From: Paludisphaera mucosa
GTDB taxonomy: Bacteria > Planctomycetota > Planctomycetia > Isosphaerales > Isosphaeraceae
DNA: 64,000 nucleotides
Assembly (NCBI RefSeq): GCF_029589435.1
Contig: NZ_JARRAG010000002.1
Span: 4,898,001-4,962,000, forward strand
Direction: 5' to 3'
The notes beneath the pieces were generated by a model. That model did no database searches, was not told the origin of the DNA, and saw only the letters and a list, made by a program, of their open reading frames with translations. Positions 1-10,643 of this stretch are shown here, one piece after another. A program made the translations under genes and the position numbers. Every line of letters begins with the position of its first letter. Position 1 is the first letter of the stretch.

Positions 1-2094
1 GCCGCCGAGCGCACCACGCATTTGATGCGAGCCGTCCTGATCGACCCCGAGAACGCGCGGGCCCGCGGACTGCTCGGCCAGGTGAAGCACGACGGCAAGT
101 GGCTGCGCGCCGAGGACGTGGCGAAGGCGGTCGAGCAGTCGCCCGAGCGGCAGGCGCTGCAGCGCGAGTACCTGGACCGCCGGGCGAAGGCCGGCGACGA
201 CGCCGACGACCAGTACAAGCTCGCCTTGTGGTGCGAGGAGAAGGGGCTGACCCAGCCGATGGTGGCCCACCTGCACCGGACGCTCCAGCTCGACCCCGGC
301 CGCGAGGGGGCCTGGCGGCGGCTGGGCTTCACCAGGGTCAAGGGCCGCTGGGTGAACCCCGAGATCGAGGCCGCCTTCAAGGCGGAGCGCGAGGCGCAGG
401 CGAAGGCCGACCGCGCCTGGAAGCCGAAGCTGGAGACCTTTCGGACCGCCCTGGGGGGCAAGAACCGGGCGAAGCGGGCCGAGGCGTTGAAGGCCCTGGC
501 GGCGATCGAGGACCCTCGCGCAGTGCCGATGCTGTGGCAGGTCTTCGTCAAGGGGGGCGTCGAGGAGCGGCAATGGGCGGCCGCCGACGTCCTCAGCCGG
601 CTCGACGCGCCCGCGGCCTCGACGGCGCTGGCGTCGCTGGCCCTGTTCAGCCCGCACGCGGCGGTGCGGAGCGATGCGGCGGCGTTGCTGCAGCGTCGCG
701 ACCCGCGGGAGTTCGCCGCGATGCTGGCGGCCGCGATCCGCGACGAGGTGAAGTACAAGGTCAAGCCGATCGACGGCCCCGGCTCGCAGGGCGAGCTGCT
801 CGTCGAGGGCGAGGACGCCAACGTGCGGCGGATCTATCGGCCGCTGCAGAGCCCGACCATCCAGCCCGGCGACCAGCTCGGGACGGACGCGAACGGCAAC
901 GTCGTCGCCAACCGCCCGATCGCGACGTATGAGGGGCCGTTGTTGACGGCCGCGTCCGCGGCGGCCCTGTGGTCCGGCAGGCCCGTGGTGGGCTACCTGC
1001 CGCCGACGGACGGCATGGCCGGCATGGACGGCCTGACCGGGCTCCCCATGGTGAATTCGCTCGGGGGGCCCGGATTCCTCTGGAACCCCCCGGACGACCT
1101 CGGGGCGGCGGCCGCGACCCTGGAGCGTGCGGGCGTGCCCGCGTCGCTGAGCCGGACGGCCGTGGGCCGGATCGCGGAGTCGAACGCCCTCTGGTCGTCG
1201 GCGCAATGGGCGGCGGCCGGGGCGATCATGGGCGGCCGCCCCACGCCCTTCGTCCGTCCGATCATCCAGGAGTCGATGCAGATCCCGATCCAGCAGATGA
1301 GGGCCGAGGCCCAGGCGTCGGCGCTGGTGGCGCGCCAGCAGCTGGCGAGCGACGTGGCCGGCATCGAGGCGTACAACGCGCCGATCCGCGAGGTCAACGA
1401 GCGGGCCGTGGCGATCCTCAAGGCGGTGAGCGGCGAGGACCGTGGCGACGACCGTCGCAAGTGGATGAACTGGGTGCTCGACCTGCAGGGCTACGGCCAG
1501 CCCTTCAAGGGCCGGACCGCGCCCACGGACCTGGTCGTCGAGGACGTGCCGATCGGCTTCCAGCCCCAGGCGGCCCCGATCCCGACGTCGGACGTGGTGG
1601 GCTTCCGCTTCTTCACCTCGTGCTTCGCCGCGGGGACGCGCGTCCGCACCCTGCAGGGGGAGCGGCCGATCGAGGAGGTCCAGCCCGGCGACCAGGTCCT
1701 CAGCCAGGACACGACCAGCGGCCGGCTCGCCTTCAAGCCGGTCCTCGAGGCCGTCCACAACCCGCCCGACTGGACGTACGCGATCGACCTGGGCAAGGAG
1801 ACGGTCCACCCCACCGGCATCCACCGCTTCTGGAAGGCCGGGAAAGGCTGGGTGATGGCCCGCGACGTCCAGCCGGGCGACCGGCTGCGGACGGCGGGCG
1901 GCGTGGTGGAGGTGGTCTCGGCCGGGCGCGAGAAGCTCCAGCCCGTCTTCAACCTCTTGCTGGCCGGCGGCGACAACTACTGCGTGGGGACGGTCGGCGT
2001 GATCGCCCACGACCACGGCCTGGTCGAGCCCGTGTCGAAGCCGTTCGACGGCGTCCCGACCACCGCCGAGCTGGCGACGGCCTCCAGGCCCTGA
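1..2094 (+). CDS. Hint-domain repeat protein, copy 1 (5' end outside window)
   Basis: The reading frame is open from base 1 (AAERTTHL...), and comparison with the three paralogs downstream shows that about 58 N-terminal residues, including the leader, lie outside the window. Visible residues 1-130 are TPR-like helical repeats (LALWCEEKGLTQPMVAHL, LDPGREGAWRRLGF) and about 135-250 are HEAT-like (DPRAVPMLWQVF, SPHAAVRSDAAALLQRRDPREF). A variable middle follows, then the motif NERAVAILKAVSGEDRGDD. The C-terminal Hint domain starts at the SC pair (Cys codon 1621-1623; CFAAGTRVRTLQG) and carries TxxH in TGIHRFW. It ends at HDH (2008-2016), where the sister copies have HDN. A 26-residue tail PFDGVPTTAEL follows. 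Hint domains autocleave or splice; the role of the whole protein is unknown. Confidence 0.9.
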   Translation, partial: AAERTTHLMRAVLIDPENARARGLLGQVKHDGKWLRAEDVAKAVEQSPERQALQREYLDRRAKAGDDADDQYKLALWCEEKGLTQPMVAHLHRTLQLDPGREGAWRRLGFTRVKGRWVNPEIEAAFKAEREAQAKADRAWKPKLETFRTALGGKNRAKRAEALKALAAIEDPRAVPMLWQVFVKGGVEERQWAAADVLSRLDAPAASTALASLALFSPHAAVRSDAAALLQRRDPREFAAMLAAAIRDEVKYKVKPIDGPGSQGELLVEGEDANVRRIYRPLQSPTIQPGDQLGTDANGNVVANRPIATYEGPLLTAASAAALWSGRPVVGYLPPTDGMAGMDGLTGLPMVNSLGGPGFLWNPPDDLGAAAATLERAGVPASLSRTAVGRIAESNALWSSAQWAAAGAIMGGRPTPFVRPIIQESMQIPIQQMRAEAQASALVARQQLASDVAGIEAYNAPIREVNERAVAILKAVSGEDRGDDRRKWMNWVLDLQGYGQPFKGRTAPTDLVVEDVPIGFQPQAAPIPTSDVVGFRFFTSCFAAGTRVRTLQGERPIEEVQPGDQVLSQDTTSGRLAFKPVLEAVHNPPDWTYAIDLGKETVHPTGIHRFWKAGKGWVMARDVQPGDRLRTAGGVVEVVSAGREKLQPVFNLLLAGGDNYCVGTVGVIAHDHGLVEPVSKPFDGVPTTAELATASRP

Positions 2095-2146
2095 GAACGA
2101 TCGACCGACCGACCGAGTTCCGACGCGTCCCCGGGAGAATCCGTCC

Positions 2147-4441
2147 ATGATGTCCGCGTGGGCCTTGAGCGTGGTGGTCGGTCTGGCGGGGGCGGCCGAC
2201 GAGTCGGCGAAGCCCGACCTGGCGGCGTACGAATCGGCGAAGGCCTCGGCCGGCCGCGACGCCGAGGCGCAGGTGAGGCTCGCCCTCTGGTGCGAGTCCC
2301 GCGGCATGGCCGCCGAGCGCACCACCCACCTGATGCGCGCCGTCCTGATCGACCCCGAGAACGCCCGCGCCCGCGGCCTGCTCGGCCAGGTCAAGCACGA
2401 CGGCAGGTGGCTGCGGCCGGCCGACGTGGCCCGGGCGATCGAGGAGTCGCCGGCGCAGCAGGCCTTGCTCCGCGAGTACCTGGACCGCCGGGCGACGGCC
2501 GGCGACGACGCCGACACCCAGTACAAGCTGGCCCTCTGGTGCGAGGAGAAGGGGCTGACCCAGCCGATGGTCGCCCACCTGCGGCGGGTGGTTCAGCTCG
2601 ACCCGGGCCGCGAGGGCGCCTGGCGGCGGCTGGGGTTCAGGAAGGCCGGCGACCGCTGGGTCGACCCGGAGGCCGAGGCCGCCCTCAAGGCCGAGCGCGA
2701 GGTGCAGGCGAAGGCCGACCGCGCCTGGAAGCCGAGGCTGGAGACGCTTCGGACCGCCCTGGGGGGCAAGAACCGGGAGAAGCGGGACGAGGTCCGGGCG
2801 GCCGTGGCGGCGGTCGCCGACCCCCGCGCCGTGCCGATGCTCTGGCGGGTCTTCGCCCGGGGCGGCGACGAACGCCGTCAGTCCGCCGTCGTGGAGGCGT
2901 TCGGACGGATCGAGGGGCCCGGAGCGGCGACGGCGCTGGCGATGCTCGCCCTGTCCAGCCCGCACGCGGCGATCCGCTCGGACGCCGCGGTCCTGCTCCA
3001 GCGCCGCGACCCGCGGGAGTTCGCCGCGATGCTCGCCGCCTCGATCCGCGACGAGGTGAAGTACAAGGTCAAGCCGGTCGAGGGCCCCGGCTCGCGCGGC
3101 GAGCTGCTCGTCGAGGGCGAGGCCGCGAACGTCCGCCGGCTCTACACGCCGCTGGATCGGGCGGCCGTCCAGCCCGGCGACGAGGTCTGGAGGGATGAGG
3201 ACGGCAAGCTCGTCGCGAATCGCCCCTTCGGGCCGGCCATGTTGGCCCCCGTCGTGACGCCCCGGGCGATCGCGGCGAGGATGCTGGGACTCCCCGTGGA
3301 GGTCCGCAGGCCCGACCCGGACGCGGCCGGCTCCGAGGAGACCGTCGACCCCGCGACCGGCCTGCTGATGCCGTATGGGTGGGGCGGCGCGATCGACGCC
3401 GACGTGTACGTGCCGACGTACGCCCCGATCGACCGAGGCGCGGTCGCGGCCACCCTCGAGAAGGCGGGAGTCCCGTCCGGGCTGAGCCGGACGGTGGCCG
3501 GCCAGGCCTCGGATCCCCGGGCCTTCGCGGCGGGGCAGGCGGCGCTGGCCCTGTACGGGGGCGGCGTCGCCCTCGACTCCCTGCAAGGCGACACGCTGCG
3601 GCCGATCTTCCGGCAGTCCGTGCAGATGCCCGTCGAGCGGATGGCGGCCGAGGCCCGGGAGTCCGCCGTCATCGCCCGCGAGCGGCTGGCGCGGGACGTG
3701 GCGACCATCGAGGCCTACAACGCCCCCATCCGCCAGGTGAACGAGCGGGCCGTGACGATCCTCAAGGCCGTCAGCGGCGAGGACCGGGGGGACGACCGCG
3801 AGAAGTGGATGGGCTGGGTGCTCGACCTGCAGGGCTACGGCCAGCCGTTGAAGGCGCGGACTTCGCCCCCGGCCGAGATCGTCGAGCAGGTTCCGCTGGG
3901 CTTCCAGCCCCAGGCGTTCCCGGTCCCCTCGGCGGCCGTCGTCGGCTACCGCATCGGCCCGTCGTGCTTCGCCGGGGGGACGCCCGTCCGCACCCTGCAG
4001 GGCGACCGGCCGATCGAGCAGGTCCGGCCCGGCGACCAGGTGCTGACCCAGGACACGACCACCGGCCGGCTCGCCTACAGGCCCGTGGTCGAGGTGATGC
4101 ACAACCCGCCGAACTGGACGTACGCGATCGACCTGGGCAAGGAGACGGTGCACCCCACGGGCATCCATCGCTTCTGGAAGGCGGGGCACGGCTGGGTGAT
4201 GGCCCGCGACGTCAAGGCCGGCGACCGGCTGCGGACGATCGGTGGCACGGTGGAGGTCGTTTCGACCATCAAGGGGGAGGAGGTCCAGCCGGTGTTCAAC
4301 CTGCTCCTCTCCGGCGGCGACAACTACTGCGTCGGGACGCTGGGCGTGATCGCGCACGACAACGGCTTCGTCGACCCGGTGGCGGCCCCCTTCGACGGCG
4401 TGCCGGCCACGGCCGAGCTGGTCGCGACCAGCAAGCCCTGA
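2147..4441 (+). CDS. Hint-domain repeat protein, copy 2
   Basis: 764 residues, with ATG preceded by GGGAGA at 2133-2138 and 52 bp after the previous stop. A short hydrophobic leader (MMSAWALSVVVGLAGAADE) suggests export. Residues ~20-165 are TPR-like, ~190-305 HEAT-like, ~335-500 a segment poorly conserved between copies, and ~530-570 contain the family motif NERAVTILKAVSGEDRGDD. The Hint domain runs from Cys607 (SCFAGGTPVRTLQGDRPIEQ) to His737-Asp738-Asn739, with TGIHRFW as the TxxH motif. It is followed by a 25-residue tail containing PFDGVPATAELVATSKP. N-terminal DNA is nearly identical to copy 3, suggesting recent duplication or gene conversion. Function beyond probable Hint autoprocessing is unknown. 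Confidence 0.92.
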   Translation: MMSAWALSVVVGLAGAADESAKPDLAAYESAKASAGRDAEAQVRLALWCESRGMAAERTTHLMRAVLIDPENARARGLLGQVKHDGRWLRPADVARAIEESPAQQALLREYLDRRATAGDDADTQYKLALWCEEKGLTQPMVAHLRRVVQLDPGREGAWRRLGFRKAGDRWVDPEAEAALKAEREVQAKADRAWKPRLETLRTALGGKNREKRDEVRAAVAAVADPRAVPMLWRVFARGGDERRQSAVVEAFGRIEGPGAATALAMLALSSPHAAIRSDAAVLLQRRDPREFAAMLAASIRDEVKYKVKPVEGPGSRGELLVEGEAANVRRLYTPLDRAAVQPGDEVWRDEDGKLVANRPFGPAMLAPVVTPRAIAARMLGLPVEVRRPDPDAAGSEETVDPATGLLMPYGWGGAIDADVYVPTYAPIDRGAVAATLEKAGVPSGLSRTVAGQASDPRAFAAGQAALALYGGGVALDSLQGDTLRPIFRQSVQMPVERMAAEARESAVIARERLARDVATIEAYNAPIRQVNERAVTILKAVSGEDRGDDREKWMGWVLDLQGYGQPLKARTSPPAEIVEQVPLGFQPQAFPVPSAAVVGYRIGPSCFAGGTPVRTLQGDRPIEQVRPGDQVLTQDTTTGRLAYRPVVEVMHNPPNWTYAIDLGKETVHPTGIHRFWKAGHGWVMARDVKAGDRLRTIGGTVEVVSTIKGEEVQPVFNLLLSGGDNYCVGTLGVIAHDNGFVDPVAAPFDGVPATAELVATSKP

Positions 4442-4491
4442 GGGCGTCCCGGCCTCGAGCCTGCAACCGAACTTCGAAGGAGTGACGCGAC

Positions 4492-6627
4492 ATGGCGGCA
4501 TGGTCCTGGATCCTGGCGATCGGCGTGGTCGCCGCGGCCGACGAGTCGGCGAAGCCCGACCTGGCGGCGTACGAGGCCGCGAAGGCCTCGGCCGGCCGCG
4601 ACGCCGAGGCGCAGGTGAGGCTCGCCCTCTGGTGCGAATCCCGCGGCATGGCCGCCGAGCGCACGACCCACCTGATGCGCGCCGTCCTGATCGACCCCGA
4701 GAACGCCGCGGCCCGCGGCCTGCTCGGCCAGGTGAAGCGCGACGGCAGGTGGCTGCGCGCCGACGACGTGGCCCGGGCCGTCGAGGACTCGCCGGCGGAG
4801 CAGGCGCTGCTCCAGGAGTATCTCGACCGCCGGACGAAGGCCCGCGACACGGCCGACGGCCAGTACAGGCTGGCCCTGTGGTGCGAGGAGAAGGGGCTGT
4901 CGCAGCCGATGGTCGCGCACCTGCGGCGGGTCGTCCAGCTCGACCCCGGCCGCGTGGGCGCCTGGCGCCGCCTCGGCTTCGAGAAGGTCAAGGGCCGCTG
5001 GGTCGACCCGCAGGCCGAGGCGGCCGACAAGGCGGCGCGCGAGGCCCAGGCGGCGGCCGACAAGGAATGGCGGCCCCGGCTGCTGAAGTTGAGGGCGGCG
5101 CTGGCGGGCCGGGACCGGGCGAAACGCGACGAGGCGCGGGCGGCCCTCGCGGCGATCGACGACCCCCGCGCCGTGCCGGCCGCGTGGAAGGTGTTCGCCC
5201 AGGGCGGGAACGAGGCCGACCAGCGCGTGGCGGTGGCCCTGTTCGGCCGGACCGACGGCCCGGCGGCGTCGACCGCCCTGGCGACGCTGGCCGTGTTCGG
5301 CCCCCACGCGGCGATCCGCGCGAACGCCGCGGCGTTGCTCCAGCGCCGCGACCCGCGCGAGTTCGCGGGGTTCCTGGCGGGGCTCATCCGCAAGGAGGTC
5401 AAGTACTGGGTGAAGCCGGTGGAGGGCCCGGGCTCGCAGGGCGAGTTGCTCGTCGCGGGCGAAGACGCCAACGTCCGCCGGCTCTACACGCCGCTGGCCG
5501 CCATGGTGCCGCCGGGCACGGCCGTCGACCCGAACGAGGTGATCATGATCCCGCTGGGCGGGCAGGCCCCGGAGGTCGGCGTCGACGGCCCCCGCTACAC
5601 CCTGGCGGAGCTGGAAGCCGCCCGCGCCCAGCGGCAGGCCCAGACGGTGGCGACGCTGGTCAAGGCGGCCCCCGTCCTGCAAGCGGTGCAGGGCCAGCTG
5701 GCGGCCGCGGCGGCCTCGCCGGCCCCCGGGATGTCCCAGACCGCGAAGCAGGCCGATCCCGATTCGCGATCGTTCCAGGAGGCCCCCGTGATGGAGGACT
5801 TCCTCCAGGTCCCCATCGGCTGGATGGTGGCCGAGACGCGGTATTCCGCCCAGGTCGCCCAGCAGCAGCTCCTGGACGACGTCCGCGCGATCGAGGCCCG
5901 CAACGCCCCGGTCCGCGACGTCAACGAGCGGTCCGGGAACATCCTCAAGGCGATCAGCGGCCGCGACTTCGGCGACGACGGCGAGAAGTGGGCCGCGTGG
6001 ACGATCGACCTCGAGGGCTACGCCTACTCCGCGTCGCCCCGGCCCGAGCCGCCGACCTACGTCGAGGACGTCCCCCTGGCCTTCGCACCCCAGGCCGGGC
6101 CGGCCGTCGTGACCCAGCAGGTGGGGACGCGGATCGTCGCCGGCCACTCCTGCTTCGCGGCCGGGACGCCGGTGCGCACCCTGCAGGGGCCGCGGGCCAT
6201 CGAGACGATCCGTCCGGGAGACCAGGTGCTGGCCGAGGACACGACGACCGGAGCCTTCCGGTATCGGGCCGTGGTCCGGGCGTTCCACAACCCGCCCAAC
6301 GAGACGTTCAAGGTCGACCTGGGCCGGGGCGAGTCGGTCGTCGCCACGGGCATCCACCGCTTCTGGAAGGCGGGGAAGGGCTGGGTGATGGCCCGCGAGC
6401 TGAAGGCCGGCGACCGGCTGCGGACCGTGGGCGGCGTGGTCGAGGTGGCGGCCGTCGAGCCGGACCGGGTGCAGCCGGTGTTCAACCTGCAGCTCGCCGG
6501 CGGCGACAACTTCTGCGTCGGCGGCCCGGGCGTCGTCGCCCACGACAACAGCTACGTCGACCCCGTCACGCGGCCCTTCGACGGCGTCCCCGCCACCGCC
6601 GAGCTGATCGCGACCAGCAAGCCCTGA
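4492..6627 (+). CDS. Hint-domain repeat protein, copy 3
   Basis: 711 residues. The ATG is supported by AAGGAG at 4477-4482 (9 nt spacing), 50 bp after copy 2. Leader MAAWSWILAIGVVAAADE, then the same TPR-like and HEAT-like blocks as its neighbours. The middle segment (about residues 340-440) is shorter and Ala/Gln-rich (LEAARAQRQAQTVATL) and does not resemble the other copies. The motif NERSGNILKAISGRDFGDD follows. The Hint domain extends from Cys554 (HSCFAAGTPVRTLQGP) to His684-Asp685-Asn686, here followed by Ser687 rather than Gly, the only copy with a nucleophilic +1 residue. Tail PFDGVPATAELIATSKP. The molecular role is unknown; export plus autoprocessing is inferred. Confidence 0.92.
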   Translation: MAAWSWILAIGVVAAADESAKPDLAAYEAAKASAGRDAEAQVRLALWCESRGMAAERTTHLMRAVLIDPENAAARGLLGQVKRDGRWLRADDVARAVEDSPAEQALLQEYLDRRTKARDTADGQYRLALWCEEKGLSQPMVAHLRRVVQLDPGRVGAWRRLGFEKVKGRWVDPQAEAADKAAREAQAAADKEWRPRLLKLRAALAGRDRAKRDEARAALAAIDDPRAVPAAWKVFAQGGNEADQRVAVALFGRTDGPAASTALATLAVFGPHAAIRANAAALLQRRDPREFAGFLAGLIRKEVKYWVKPVEGPGSQGELLVAGEDANVRRLYTPLAAMVPPGTAVDPNEVIMIPLGGQAPEVGVDGPRYTLAELEAARAQRQAQTVATLVKAAPVLQAVQGQLAAAAASPAPGMSQTAKQADPDSRSFQEAPVMEDFLQVPIGWMVAETRYSAQVAQQQLLDDVRAIEARNAPVRDVNERSGNILKAISGRDFGDDGEKWAAWTIDLEGYAYSASPRPEPPTYVEDVPLAFAPQAGPAVVTQQVGTRIVAGHSCFAAGTPVRTLQGPRAIETIRPGDQVLAEDTTTGAFRYRAVVRAFHNPPNETFKVDLGRGESVVATGIHRFWKAGKGWVMARELKAGDRLRTVGGVVEVAAVEPDRVQPVFNLQLAGGDNFCVGGPGVVAHDNSYVDPVTRPFDGVPATAELIATSKP

Positions 6628-6682
6628 GCCCAGACCGCCGACCGAACCGCCCGCAGGCACGACGTCCCAGGAGGATTCGCAC

Positions 6683-9022
6683 ATGATCACGACGTGGGCT
6701 CTGGGCGCGGTCCTGGGGATGGTCGGGGGCCCGGCCGACGGGTCGGCCGGGCCCGACCTCGCGGCGTACGAATCGGCGAGGGCCTCGGCCGGCCGCGACG
6801 CCGAGGCGCAGGTGAGGCTGGCCCTCTGGTGCGAGGCCCGCGGCATGGCCGCCGAGCGCACCACCCACCTGATGCGCGCCGTGCTGGTCGACCCCGAGAA
6901 CGCCCGCGCCCGCGGGCTGCTCGGCCAGGTGAAGCATGAGGGACGGTGGCTGCGGCCCGCCGACGTGGCGAAGGCCGTCGAGGAGTCGCCCGAGCGGCAG
7001 GCGCTGCTGCGCGAGTACCTGGACCGCCGGGCGAAGACCCGGGACAAAGCCGACGACCTGTATCGCCTGGCCCTCTGGTGCGAGGACCGGGGCCTGACGC
7101 AGGCGATGGTCGCGCACCTGCACCGGGTGGTCCAGCTCGACCCCGGCCGCGAGGGCGCCTGGCGGCGGCTGGGGTACAAGAAGGTCTCGGGCCGCTGGAT
7201 CAAGCCGGAGATCCAGGCGGCCGCGAAGGCCGAGCGCGAGACCCAGGCCCGGGCCGACCAGGCCTGGCGGGCGAGGCTCGCGGCGATCAAGGCCGGCCTC
7301 GCGAGCAGGGACGGGGCGAAGCGGGCCGAGGCCCTGGCGGCCCTGCAGGCGATCGACGACCCCCGCGCCGTCCGGACGCTCTGGGTCGCCTTCGCCGAGG
7401 CGGGCGACGAGCGCGGCCAGGCGACGGCCGTCGAGGCGTTCGCCCGGATCGAGGGGCCGGGGGCGTCCCTGGGCCTGGCGACGCTGGCCGTGTTCAGCCC
7501 CCACGCCGGGATCCGGCAGGAGGCGTCGCGACGCCTCGTCGGCCGCGACCCGCGCGACTTCGGCGGGTTCCTGGCGAGCCTCGTGAGCGACGAGATCAAG
7601 TACAAGGTCAAGACCATCGACGGCCCCGGCTCGCAGGGCGAGCTGCTCATCATGGGCCCGGAGTCGAACGTCCGGCGCATCTACTCTTCGCTCGAGGCCC
7701 CCCCGCCCCCCATCACCGTCTCGCTCGACCACGGCGGCTACCGATCGATCCGCGTGCCCTTGGGCCCGACGACGACCCTCGCGTCCTACAACGGCGCGTC
7801 GCTCGCCGCGCAGTTGGCCGAGGCGGAGCGCTCCAAGGTGGATGGGACGCCTCCCGTGTCCAGGACCCTCCATGCCGCCGGCCTGTCGACCGAGCTGAGC
7901 CAGATGGTCGCCGAGGCGGCCATGCCCGGTTCGACCAACTTCTCGCCCGGGAGGGTGGCTCTTCTGCCCCAGTCGTCCCCCTTGCCGGTGTACGGGCAAG
8001 ACGCGCCGACCCTCGCCCCCGCGGGCCTCACCCCCGGCCAGGCCCTGGTCGAGTCCGGCCGGATGATCCCCACGGCCGTCGGCTTCGCCGAGACGATCTC
8101 GATCGCGGACCTGACCAAGGAGCTGACCCGGGACCCGAGCCCGGCGAACATCCAGAAGCTCGGCGGCCCGAACTTCCGGCCCATCCTCGATTCGGGCCTC
8201 ACCATCCCCGTGGACTTGATGATCGAGCATGCCAGGAATTCCGTCTACGTCTCCCGGCAGCAGATGGCCGACGACGTCGCCTGGATCGAGGCGGCCAACG
8301 AGCCGGTGCGCACGCTCAACGAGCGGGCCACGACGATCTTGAAGACGGTCAGCGGCCAGGATTACGGGTACGATCCTCGAAAATGGCGGGACTGGGTCTT
8401 CGACGTCAACGGCTACGGCGTGCCTTGGCGGTCCCCGGAGCCGGAAGTCCCGACCTTCATCGAGGAGGTCCCCCTGGCTTACAACCCCACCATCTTTTTC
8501 CCCGTGGAAACCGGGGCCATCCTGGGCTTCACGAAGGCCGGCCCGTCGTGCTTCGCGGGGGGGACGCCCGTCCGCACGCTGCGGGGCGACCGGCCGATCG
8601 AGGCGATCCGGGCGGGCGACCTGGTGCTCAGCCAGGACACCACCACGGGTAAGCTGGCCTATCAGCCGGTCGTCCAGGTGATGCACAACCCGCCCAACAC
8701 GACCTACAAGATCGACCTGGGCAGGGAGACGGTCCACCCCACGGGCATCCACCGCTTCTGGAAGGCCGGCCGCGGCTGGATCATGGCTCGCGAGGTCAAG
8801 GCCGGCGACCGGCTGCGGACCGTCGGCGGGACGGTCGAGGTCGTCTCGGTGGAGAAGGAGCCGGTCCAGCCGGTGTTCAACCTGCTGCTCTCGGGCGGCG
8901 ACAACTTCTGCGTCGGGTCGATCGGCCTGATCGCCCACGACAACGGCTTCGTCGAGCCGGTGGCGCGGCCGTTCGACGGCGTCCCGGCCACCACCGACCT
9001 GGCCGCGACCGCCAAGCCCTGA
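6683..9022 (+). CDS. Hint-domain repeat protein, copy 4
   Basis: 779 residues, the longest complete copy. The start has a strong AGGAGG at 6669-6674 (8 nt spacing), 55 bp after copy 3. Weak leader MITTWALGAVLGMVGG, TPR-like repeats to ~165, HEAT-like ~195-310, and a long variable segment (~330-530). The family motif reads NERATTILKTVSGQDYGYD. The Hint domain spans Cys623 (SCFAGGTPVRTLRGDRPIE) to His752-Asp753-Asn754, with TGIHRFWKAGRGWIMA carrying TxxH and the FNLLLSGGDNFCVG strand. It ends in a 25-residue tail (PFDGVPATTDLAATAKP). Last member of the array. Each member appears to have its own SD but no terminator was seen between them, so cotranscription is likely. Confidence 0.92.
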   Translation: MITTWALGAVLGMVGGPADGSAGPDLAAYESARASAGRDAEAQVRLALWCEARGMAAERTTHLMRAVLVDPENARARGLLGQVKHEGRWLRPADVAKAVEESPERQALLREYLDRRAKTRDKADDLYRLALWCEDRGLTQAMVAHLHRVVQLDPGREGAWRRLGYKKVSGRWIKPEIQAAAKAERETQARADQAWRARLAAIKAGLASRDGAKRAEALAALQAIDDPRAVRTLWVAFAEAGDERGQATAVEAFARIEGPGASLGLATLAVFSPHAGIRQEASRRLVGRDPRDFGGFLASLVSDEIKYKVKTIDGPGSQGELLIMGPESNVRRIYSSLEAPPPPITVSLDHGGYRSIRVPLGPTTTLASYNGASLAAQLAEAERSKVDGTPPVSRTLHAAGLSTELSQMVAEAAMPGSTNFSPGRVALLPQSSPLPVYGQDAPTLAPAGLTPGQALVESGRMIPTAVGFAETISIADLTKELTRDPSPANIQKLGGPNFRPILDSGLTIPVDLMIEHARNSVYVSRQQMADDVAWIEAANEPVRTLNERATTILKTVSGQDYGYDPRKWRDWVFDVNGYGVPWRSPEPEVPTFIEEVPLAYNPTIFFPVETGAILGFTKAGPSCFAGGTPVRTLRGDRPIEAIRAGDLVLSQDTTTGKLAYQPVVQVMHNPPNTTYKIDLGRETVHPTGIHRFWKAGRGWIMAREVKAGDRLRTVGGTVEVVSVEKEPVQPVFNLLLSGGDNFCVGSIGLIAHDNGFVEPVARPFDGVPATTDLAATAKP

Positions 9023-9161
9023 GCGGCCGCCTCGTCCCGCGAGGGCACCTCGATTCGCGACCGGGGGCCGGGCCGCCCCTTGATCGGCCTCGCGTCGACG
9101 CGTCCAATGGTTCGCGGCGTCGACGGGCGGAGGCGGGCGAGGTCGAAGGAGGGCTGGCGAG

Positions 9162-10643
9162 ATGAAGCGGTCATGGCGGGCGGCGGTCCTGTGCGCGTTC
9201 GTGGGGGCGTCGGCCTCGGCTTCGGAGCCCCTGTCGCGGGGCGAGCCCGAGGCGCAGGGGGTGTCGTCGGCGGCGATCCGGGAGTTCGTCCTGGGGGCGG
9301 ACGCGATCGACTCGTTCCACAGCGTGATGCTCGTCCGCCACGGCAAGGTCGTGGCCGAGGGCTGGTGGGCGCCCTTCGACGCCGAGACCCGGCACGCGCT
9401 CTTCTCGCTGAGCAAGAGCTTCACCTCCACGGCCGTCGGCCTGGCCGCCGCCGAGGGCAAGCTGAGCGTCGACGACCCGGTGCTCAAGTTCTTCCCCGAG
9501 GACGCCCCGGCCGAGCCGAGCGCCAACCTCAAGGCGATGCGGGTCAGCGACCTCTTGCGGATGTCGACGGGCCACCAGGACGAGCCCAAGCGGCCCGACG
9601 ACCAGGTCTGGACCAAGGTCTTCCTCGGCCACCCCGTGCCCAACAAGCCCGGCACCCACTTCCTTTACAACACGTCGGGCACGTACATGGCCTCGGCCAT
9701 CGTCCAGAAGGCGACCGGCCAGACCGTGCTCGACTACCTCCGCCCCCGCCTGTTCGACCCCCTGGGGATCGACGACCCCGAATGGGGCGCGAGCCCGCAG
9801 GGCGTCTCGCTGGGCGGCTACGGCCTGAGCGTGCGGACAGAGGACATCGCCAAATTCGGGCAGCTTTATCTGCAGAAGGGTCGATGGAACGGCAAGCAGC
9901 TCGTCCCCGAGGCCTGGGTCGCCGCGGCGACGAAGCTCCAGACCTCCAACGGCAGCAACCCCAAGAGCGACTGGGAGCAGGGCTACGGCTACCAGTTCTG
10001 GCGGGCCCGCCACGGCGCGTACCGGGGCGACGGCGCCTTCGGCCAGTACTGCGTCGTCATGCCCGAGCAGGACGCCGTGCTGGCCGTCACCAGCGCCGTG
10101 AAGGACATGCAGTCGGTCCTCGACCTCGCCTGGGACCGCCTCTTGCCCGGCCTCAAGAAGGACGCGCTGCCCCCCGACCCGGCCGCCCGCGAGGCCCTGG
10201 CGCAGGCGCTCAGGAACCTCAAGATGAAGCCCCCCGAAGGGGCCGCCGCGCCCGGGTCGTCGGTGAAGGCGGTCGGCCGGACGTTCGCGTTCGAGCCCAA
10301 CCCCCGGAAGCTCGAAGCCCTGCGCGTGGAGCAGGGGGGGGCGAACGAGGGCTCGATCACCCTGGTCCTCCGGGTCGACGGCGCCGAGCGCCGCATCCCC
10401 TGCGGCCGGGGCGAGTGGACGAAGTCGCGCGCCGCCGTCGCCGGCTTCCCCGAGCAGCCCGCCGCCGCCGCGGCCGCCTGGACGGCCGACGACGTCCTGA
10501 CCGCCAAGGTCGTCCTCGTCGAGTCCCCGTTCAACGTCACCTACCGGATCAAGTTCGAGGGCGACCGCGTCACCGTCGACCCCGAGGTCAACGTCGCCTT
10601 CGGCGCGACCCGCGGGGCCCCGCTCGTCGGCAAGGCGGAATGA
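9162..10643 (+). CDS. Secreted serine hydrolase, beta-lactamase class C / PBP4* fold
   Basis: 493 residues with AAGGAGG at 9146-9152 ahead of the ATG and a signal peptide ending near ASASA-SEP. The nucleophile motif SxxK is Ser82-Leu-Ser-Lys85 (FSLSKSFTSTAVG). A YNTSGTY motif resembles the YxN region, and GYGYQFWRARHG followed by GAFGQY matches the C-terminal part of the COG1680 fold. The last ~150 residues form an extra beta-rich domain often seen in such periplasmic hydrolases. Members act as D-aminopeptidases, esterases or carboxypeptidases; the substrate cannot be told from sequence. Its TGA overlaps the ATG of the next gene (ATGA), indicating translational coupling. Confidence 0.9.
   Translation: MKRSWRAAVLCAFVGASASASEPLSRGEPEAQGVSSAAIREFVLGADAIDSFHSVMLVRHGKVVAEGWWAPFDAETRHALFSLSKSFTSTAVGLAAAEGKLSVDDPVLKFFPEDAPAEPSANLKAMRVSDLLRMSTGHQDEPKRPDDQVWTKVFLGHPVPNKPGTHFLYNTSGTYMASAIVQKATGQTVLDYLRPRLFDPLGIDDPEWGASPQGVSLGGYGLSVRTEDIAKFGQLYLQKGRWNGKQLVPEAWVAAATKLQTSNGSNPKSDWEQGYGYQFWRARHGAYRGDGAFGQYCVVMPEQDAVLAVTSAVKDMQSVLDLAWDRLLPGLKKDALPPDPAAREALAQALRNLKMKPPEGAAAPGSSVKAVGRTFAFEPNPRKLEALRVEQGGANEGSITLVLRVDGAERRIPCGRGEWTKSRAAVAGFPEQPAAAAAAWTADDVLTAKVVLVESPFNVTYRIKFEGDRVTVDPEVNVAFGATRGAPLVGKAE

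What the first reader, a model, noticed from the sequence alone, without database searches (positions are those of the whole stretch)
1..9022. Tandem array of at least four Hint-domain repeat proteins
Four consecutive paralogs share leader, TPR-like, HEAT-like, a conserved NERxxxILKxxSGxDxGxD motif, a C-terminal Hint autoprocessing domain and a ~25-residue tail. Hint domains are known from inteins, hedgehog proteins, bacterial intein-like elements and polymorphic toxins, but here no toxin module follows and copies are clustered. The array continues beyond the window. I know of no described system with this arrangement; a secreted, self-processing, possibly clonally variable surface family is a reasonable hypothesis.
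Basis: partly seen in the sequence, partly recalled or inferred. Interest (0 to 1): 0.75.

Follow-up and report, generated by a model that had tools for sequence, protein, structure and literature searches.

The report
Planctomycete self-cutting scaffold proteins, Asp-type Hint
Four neighbouring genes encode probably exported repeat-scaffold proteins that end in an intein-like domain expected to cut itself; relatives occur in many planctomycetes and differ from toxin-releasing proteins by carrying no toxin and by a consistent swap of the domain's last key residue from asparagine to aspartate.

Summary
Window 1-9022 carries four same-strand paralogs; the array is four genes, the first starting 171 bases before the window. 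Each has a hydrophobic leader, TPR, HEAT repeats, a probably disordered insert, an undescribed beta/long-helix domain, a Hint domain and a 26-residue tail. The Hint fold is clear (Z 20.4, 1.5 A, 133 residues to the bacterial intein-like domain 2LWY). Cys1 is present in 79 of 79 Isosphaeraceae relatives. The intein terminal Asn is Asp in 79 of 79, and in 42 of 42 relatives sampled from other families of the class; another sample gave two distinct genes with Gly. Of 29 non-family PT-HINT proteins of the phylum, 27 keep His-Asn and none has Asp; 27 have about 87-288 residues after it, against 14-50 in the family. So it is probably not a toxin system. Best reading: a BIL-like domain that cuts itself from an exported scaffold at Cys1. 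Cleavage and export are untested. 'Clonally variable' is not supported: trees suggest that 5' halves are homogenised within genomes while Hint halves keep orthology across species. A new variant of a known kind.

The parts
1..2094 (+). gene 1 of the array (5' end 171 bases before the window, at G000:C2:4897830); Hint Cys codon 1621-1623, terminal Asp codon 2011-2013
2147..4441 (+). gene 2 (P0001, 764 aa)
2147..2197 (+). gene 2 hydrophobic leader, about residues 1-17 (export inferred)
   Evidence: sequence; hydrophobic segment in 66 of 72 relatives
2231..2656 (+). gene 2 TPR-like region, about residues 29-170
   Evidence: (weak)
2747..3046 (+). gene 2 HEAT repeats, about residues 201-300
   Evidence: (below cut-off in this copy)
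3047..3946 (+). gene 2 pre-Hint beta/long-helix domain, about residues 301-600, interrupted by an insert of mostly low confidence (about 363-489); carries the NERxxxILKxxSGxDxGxD motif
   Evidence: gene 3's version folded alone; no relative found
3965..4360 (+). gene 2 Hint domain, Cys607 (codon 3965-3967) to Asp738 (codon 4358-4360)
4361..4438 (+). gene 2 C-terminal tail, 26 residues with PFD motif
4492..6627 (+). gene 3 (P0002, 711 aa); Hint Cys codon 6151-6153, terminal Asp codon 6544-6546
6683..9022 (+). gene 4 (P0003, 779 aa); Hint Cys codon 8549-8551, terminal Asp codon 8939-8941

Best explanation
Each gene encodes a probably exported scaffold protein: leader, TPR, HEAT repeats and a beta/long-helix domain, followed by a C-terminal BIL-type Hint domain and a short tail. 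The Hint acts in cis. Cys1 makes an N-to-S acyl shift, aided by the block B Thr/Ser and His, and the thioester is then hydrolysed or attacked by a small nucleophile, so that the scaffold is detached from Hint plus tail. The canonical terminal Asn, thought to serve release of the C-terminal toxin in toxin-type relatives, is replaced by Asp. The Asp either keeps C-terminal cleavage slow or absent or, more boldly, takes part in thioester hydrolysis. Shown: fold (by prediction), conserved residues, Asn-to-Asp swap, absence of a toxin-sized extension, spread in the class, tandem arrays, signs of 5' homogenisation. Inferred: export, cleavage and its direction, role of the Asp, biological purpose.
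For: Hint residues 606-738 of the model align to BIL 2LWY at Z 20.4, 1.5 A, 133 residues; alignments to the Mtu RecA and Ssp DnaE inteins run from Cys607 at residue 1 to Asp738 at the last aligned residue 440 and 159. Profile match to 2LWY at E 9e-25. In 79 Isosphaeraceae rows (window copies not among them): Cys1 79, block B His 78, Thr or Ser at B:7 79, Asp at the Asn position 79, preceding His 72; +1 is Ser in 2 and never Cys or Thr. In 42 rows from other families of the class: Cys1 41, block B His 40, Asp 42. The four window copies also have Cys and Asp. Of 29 non-family PT-HINT ORFs 27 have His-Asn, none Asp. Two held papers, passages read, say that BILs lack the +1 nucleophile and mainly cleave, and one that Asp at this position can cyclise in some inteins.
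Against: No cleavage was observed: all this is sequence and prediction. In L202 the Asp persists although Cys1 and the block B His are lost, and in L231 although the block B and G:6 His are lost, so the Asp may be structural. The tail is conserved (PFD Asp 79 of 79), which is odd if Hint plus tail is merely discarded. Two distinct family genes have Gly instead of Asp. The window copies' leaders lack the positive charge of a typical signal peptide. The rows were gathered with profiles built from the family, which favours conserved members.
Confidence: 0.55

Rival explanations
1. The Asp at the Asn position cyclises, as in some atypical inteins. The domain then cuts at its C-terminal end and releases the 14-50 residue tail as a peptide, or joins it to the scaffold as type A BILs can.
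For: Asp in 79 of 79 and 42 of 42 rows, preceding His in 72 and 38; tail motifs (PFD in Isosphaeraceae, often PGL or PGW in other families); a review says that Asp and Gln at this position can cyclise.
Against: 27 of 29 non-family relatives, whose extension is thought to be released, keep Asn and none has Asp; two family genes have Gly; the tail is short and its end variable.
Confidence: 0.18
2. Polymorphic toxin system: the arrays are toxin cassettes whose toxin domain was lost or is not recognised.
For: The domain matches PT-HINT, and the same genome has an HN-type PT-HINT protein with about 135 further residues (L050/L041).
Against: Tails of 14-48 residues in 79 plus 42 rows; no recurrent neighbour that could be an immunity gene; a different terminal residue.
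Confidence: 0.04
3. The Hint is a non-catalytic structural or binding module that has kept its fold.
For: Asp persists in the degenerate members L202 and L231; no activity data.
Against: Cys1 79 of 79 and block B His 78 of 79; 41 and 40 of 42 in other families.
Confidence: 0.15
4. Clonally variable surface family, with copies exchanging variable cassettes.
For: The middle segment is 19-41% identical between copies against 80-85% in the TPR part; the 5' halves show signs of exchange.
Against: The exchange homogenises the TPR half; two Hint halves keep orthologs in another species; much of the middle is low-confidence, probably disordered. Strains of one species were not compared, and no search for silent cassettes or inversions was made.
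Confidence: 0.06

Closest known systems
Bacterial intein-like (BIL) domains, in particular the C. thermocellum domain of PDB 2LWY
   Same: Hint fold (Z 20.4; profile E 9e-25), Cys1, block B Thr/Ser-x-x-His, no +1 nucleophile in nearly all members
   Different: Asp instead of the His-Asn end of type A BILs, yet block G is recognisable, unlike type B as the review describes it; fused to a TPR-HEAT scaffold, often in tandem arrays
PT-HINT domains of polymorphic toxins (PF07591)
   Same: same Pfam family
   Different: no toxin-sized extension, Asp instead of Asn, no recurrent neighbour that could be immunity
Hedgehog C-terminal autoprocessing domain (1AT0, 6TYY)
   Same: Hint fold (Z 18.3 and 18.4); Hint placed C-terminal to the part that would be released
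   Different: only 14-50 residues after the Hint; the residue at the position I assign to Hedgehog D46 (ungapped Pfam match plus recalled numbering) is His in 59 of 79 Isosphaeraceae rows but in only 2 of 42 in other families

Membership tests
BIL domains (general) | Hint fold | tested here: met
   predicted model: Foldseek E 8.3e-9 and VIA Z 20.4 to 2LWY
BIL domains (general) | no +1 nucleophile (as the review states) | tested here: met
   +1 is N61 F9 Y3 S2 A2 V1 D1 of 79 and N26 V6 I3 S2 A2 L1 H1 G1 of 42: Ser in 2 and 2 rows, Cys or Thr in none
BIL domains (general) | autocleavage or splicing activity | not testable with these tools
   needs protein
BIL type A | C-terminal His-Asn | tested here: not met
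   Asp in place of Asn in 79 of 79 and 42 of 42 rows
BIL type B | no similarity to intein block G | tested here: inconclusive
   the block aligns and keeps its His in 72 of 79 and 38 of 42 rows, but Asn is replaced
Polymorphic toxin with PT-HINT | PF07591 match above cut-off | tested here: met
   all four copies; 46 of 46 members match at E 0.1 or better
Polymorphic toxin with PT-HINT | toxin domain after the Hint | tested here: not met
   14-48 residues after the Hint in 79 plus 42 rows
Polymorphic toxin with PT-HINT | neighbouring immunity gene | tested here: inconclusive
   most frequent downstream cluster 5 of 52 groups; same strand 26 of 52; function of most neighbours not examined
Intein | C-extein starting with Cys, Ser or Thr | tested here: not met
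   short tail; +1 is Ser in 2 of 79 and 2 of 42, otherwise none of the three
Hedgehog Hog domain | sterol-recognition region after the Hint (recalled) | tested here: not met
   14-50 residues after the Hint

The most novel reading that the evidence does not exclude
A third type of bacterial intein-like domain, 'His-Asp', spread through the planctomycete class as a dedicated self-release module of exported TPR-HEAT scaffolds. The Asp that replaces the terminal Asn turns a splicing or toxin-releasing domain into a pure N-terminal autoprotease, or into a thioester donor that hands the scaffold to a cell-surface nucleophile.
Probability: 0.3. Interest if true: 0.75.

Novelty: new variant of a known kind. 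Interest (0 to 1): 0.55.

Why it matters
In bacteria, Hint domains are best known from inteins and from toxin release. A widespread, toxin-free family with a consistent Asn-to-Asp swap would show what a Hint does when it serves its own host protein, gives a natural set of variants for testing the role of the terminal residue, and points to a self-processing step in the poorly known planctomycete cell envelope.

Tried and rejected
Rejected: toxin cassette (no toxin-sized extension, no recurrent neighbour); true intein; Hedgehog-like general base (His in 59 of 79 Isosphaeraceae rows but 2 of 42 elsewhere; the position assignment rests on the ungapped Pfam Hint match and on recalled numbering); clonal variation.

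Led nowhere: the fold search with the pre-Hint domain folded alone (gene 3's version) gave no PDB match better than E 0.58, no viral match better than E 0.15, best VIA Z 4.0; this does not prove a new fold. Pfam and NCBIfam scans of that domain gave only scattered weak matches. The first genome-contig scan with A1 confirmed no relative; the permitted second one with A3 gave 51 loci. The consensus scan found 0 promoter-like and 0 terminator-like sites in window 1900-9400. Paper searches: 1, 0, 1 and 0 papers; the same Neisseria paper in 20 and 64; 20 of 341 listed, titles and abstract starts seen; 13 listed; 4 listed. None listed is about this family. One search was void: it asked for 'planctomycet' as a whole word. 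The original BIL papers asked for are not held, so 'not in print' is limited to these searches.

Weak points. Of 92 ORFs that matched in the Isosphaeraceae-centred set, 80 were aligned; the 12 left out are contig-cut or N-terminal pieces, the Hint-less L051, and the toxin-type L050. One fragment row was then dropped (79). In the class set 43 ORFs matched in 40 places; one 247-residue fragment was dropped (42). The class places were picked from the listed best hits. Array counts include split and contig-end genes and miss one gene of the L060 triple. The groups tested were chosen after the quick trees. Lengths after the Hint are approximate where the alignment stopped early.

Full report
Observation. 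The window holds four same-strand open frames of one family at 1-2094, 2147-4441, 4492-6627 and 6683-9022, separated by 50-55 bases; genes 3, 4 and 1 are 64, 58 and 69% identical to gene 2. In the held genome (8.2 Mb, 9 contigs) the array is G000:C2:4897830-4907019; gene 1 starts 171 bases before the window. The same genome has two more full-length members, at C2:258750 and C1:1573516; seven PT-HINT places in all at E 0.01, the seventh being an HN-type protein at C2:344467; and one Hint-less relative at C2:2013578.

Anatomy. Pfam finds PT-HINT and Hint_2 above cut-off in all four copies, HEAT_2 above cut-off only in gene 1, and weak TPR. Over 46 members, PT-HINT and Hint_2 are matched in 46, HEAT_2 in 43 and TPR_14 in 28 at E 0.1. 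The AlphaFold2 model of gene 2 (46-row alignment, mean pLDDT 79.6, pTM 0.54) has confident TPR, HEAT and Hint parts, a long helix at 496-543 and mostly low confidence at about 363-489. The pre-Hint part of gene 3 folded alone reaches mean pLDDT 83.4 and pTM 0.69, with strands and a 48-residue helix. It has no PDB match better than E 0.58 and best VIA Z 4.0, which only says that no relative was found.

Hint domain. Residues 606-738 align to 2LWY, the C. thermocellum BIL domain, at Z 20.4, 1.5 A, 133 residues, and to the Mtu RecA intein (2IN0) at Z 19.9, 1.4 A, 127 residues. The ranges put Cys607 at residue 1 and Asp738 at residue 440 of the Mtu RecA and 159 of the Ssp DnaE intein; that these are the terminal Asn is recalled. 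By sequence the 46-row profile matches 2LWY at E 9e-25.

Catalytic residues. In 79 Isosphaeraceae rows, the window copies not among them: Cys1 79, Phe2 79, B:7 Thr 60 or Ser 19, B:10 His 78, F:4 Asn 79, G:6 His 72, Asp at the terminal Asn position 79, PFD Asp in the tail 79. The four window copies also have Cys and Asp. In 42 rows from other families of the class: Cys1 41, B:10 His 40, G:6 His 38, Asp 42. L202 lacks Cys1 and the B:10 His; L231 lacks the B:10 and G:6 His; both keep the Asp, which speaks for a partly structural role.

Contrast with other PT-HINT proteins. PT-HINT was searched in 98 class genomes (56 with a match at E 1e-8) and A3 in 246 genomes of the phylum (9 with a match at E 1e-25, own genome included). 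Loci are given only for the best matches. From L239-L267, L040, L041 and L269-L276 I examined 29 ORFs without the TPR-HEAT part: His-Asn in 27 (11 by alignment, 16 read by eye), His-His in one (L248_143), one cut before the motif (L248_2984). About 87-288 residues follow in 27 of 29; L274 and L248_2984 are cut off. Their extensions were not tested for toxin domains. Family rows in the same set have Asp in 10 and Gly in 4, the four being two genes seen twice (L256 = L270, L258 = L269), with 16-50 residues after it. So the terminal residue separates the two kinds in this sample, with the Gly genes as exception.

Distribution. In the family (45 genomes, own included) 41 have a match at E 0.001. 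In 297 class genomes 241 have a match at E 1e-10; many matches cover one part only, so this is no count of full-length members. Of 43 ORFs in 40 places fetched outside the family, 42 match both an N-terminal part and the Hint in one frame. Named sources include Paludisphaera soli, Singulisphaera acidiphila DSM 18658, Aquisphaera insulae and Tautonia sociabilis. Of 58 groups in the Isosphaeraceae regions 37 are single, 16 double, 4 triple, 1 quadruple (includes split and contig-end genes, misses one gene of the L060 triple). Tandem copies also occur outside the family (L214 two, L217 three).

Neighbours. Same strand upstream in 27 of 55 groups, downstream in 26 of 52; the most frequent cluster occurs 5 times on either side. 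Within the genus the locus is partly syntenic: the MoCoBD gene upstream of the window array (cluster 5) is also directly upstream in L060 and L062.

Evolution of the array. Between the four copies the TPR part is 80-85% identical, HEAT 47-69%, middle 19-41%, pre-Hint 40-72%, Hint 66-82%. In quick trees of six genomes of the genus, copies cluster by genome in the TPR half (11 changes, 0 of 200 shuffles as low) but not in the Hint half (15 changes, 116 of 200). In careful trees (25 and 24 rows) the TPR halves of the four copies fall together with moderate support (86/89), and joining g1 with G030_a1 is rejected there (AU p 0.002), while joining g3 with G030_a2 is not (p 0.20). In the Hint half g3 joins G030_a2 (98/99), g1 joins G030_a1 (95/98), and the four as one clade are rejected (p 0.0002), as are the four of G029 (p 0.00006; in the TPR half they are neither shown nor rejected, p 0.28). 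The longest identical run of each of the six pairs (39-59 bases) begins 84-154 bases into the genes. This fits gene conversion in the 5' half; it is not proof.

Mechanism. A review (PMC4031507, passages read) says that BILs lack the +1 nucleophile, that type A end in His-Asn and mostly cleave, that type B lack block G similarity and cleave, and that Asp or Gln at the terminal position can cyclise in some inteins. PMC7664689 (passages read) also says that BILs mainly give cleaved products. The polymorphic toxin survey (PMC3482391, passages read) says that C-terminal HINT domains are likely to release the toxin. Here there is nothing toxin-sized to release. I therefore hold N-terminal cleavage at Cys1, freeing the scaffold, most likely (0.55), C-terminal cleavage by Asp less so (0.18), a non-catalytic role possible (0.15). 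The Hint-less paralog L051 ends about 15 residues after a motif like the pre-Hint motif (match weak, i-E 0.0045 and 0.073), which fits a scaffold that can work without the Hint.

Export is inferred: 66 of 72 relatives with a readable anchor have a hydrophobic segment ahead of the TPR part (8 of 80 had no anchor). The window copies have no Lys or Arg between the assumed start and that segment.

Novelty. Searches: (78 void). No listed paper is about this family; the BIL papers I asked for are not held. It is BIL-like by predicted fold and by the missing +1 nucleophile, fails the type A feature, and does not clearly fit type B. I file it as a new variant of a known kind.

Noticed in passing
G000:C2:344467-344859 (L050, L041): One PT-HINT protein with His-Asn and about 135 further residues, the only non-family one among the seven PT-HINT places of the window's genome.
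   Followed up: partly
G061: One planctomycete genome with 37 PT-HINT matches, many partial and clustered, like orphan toxin cassettes.
   Followed up: no
L082 6731-9014 and L086 5510-10319: Family genes split into an N-terminal and a Hint half: in L082 by overlapping frames, in L086 by about 1.4 kb.
   Followed up: no
L155, L156 (Deltaproteobacteria and Deferrisomatales MAGs): Hint domains ending in His-Gln with a short extension, another atypical terminal residue.
   Followed up: no
L256, L258 (G063, G072): Family members with LTHG at the end, Gly in place of the Asp.
   Followed up: partly
G000:C2:2013578-2015029 (L051): Hint-less TPR-HEAT protein that ends shortly after a motif like the family's pre-Hint motif.
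   Followed up: partly
window 9162-10643: Beta-lactamase-family (PF00144) protein just downstream of the array.
   Followed up: no
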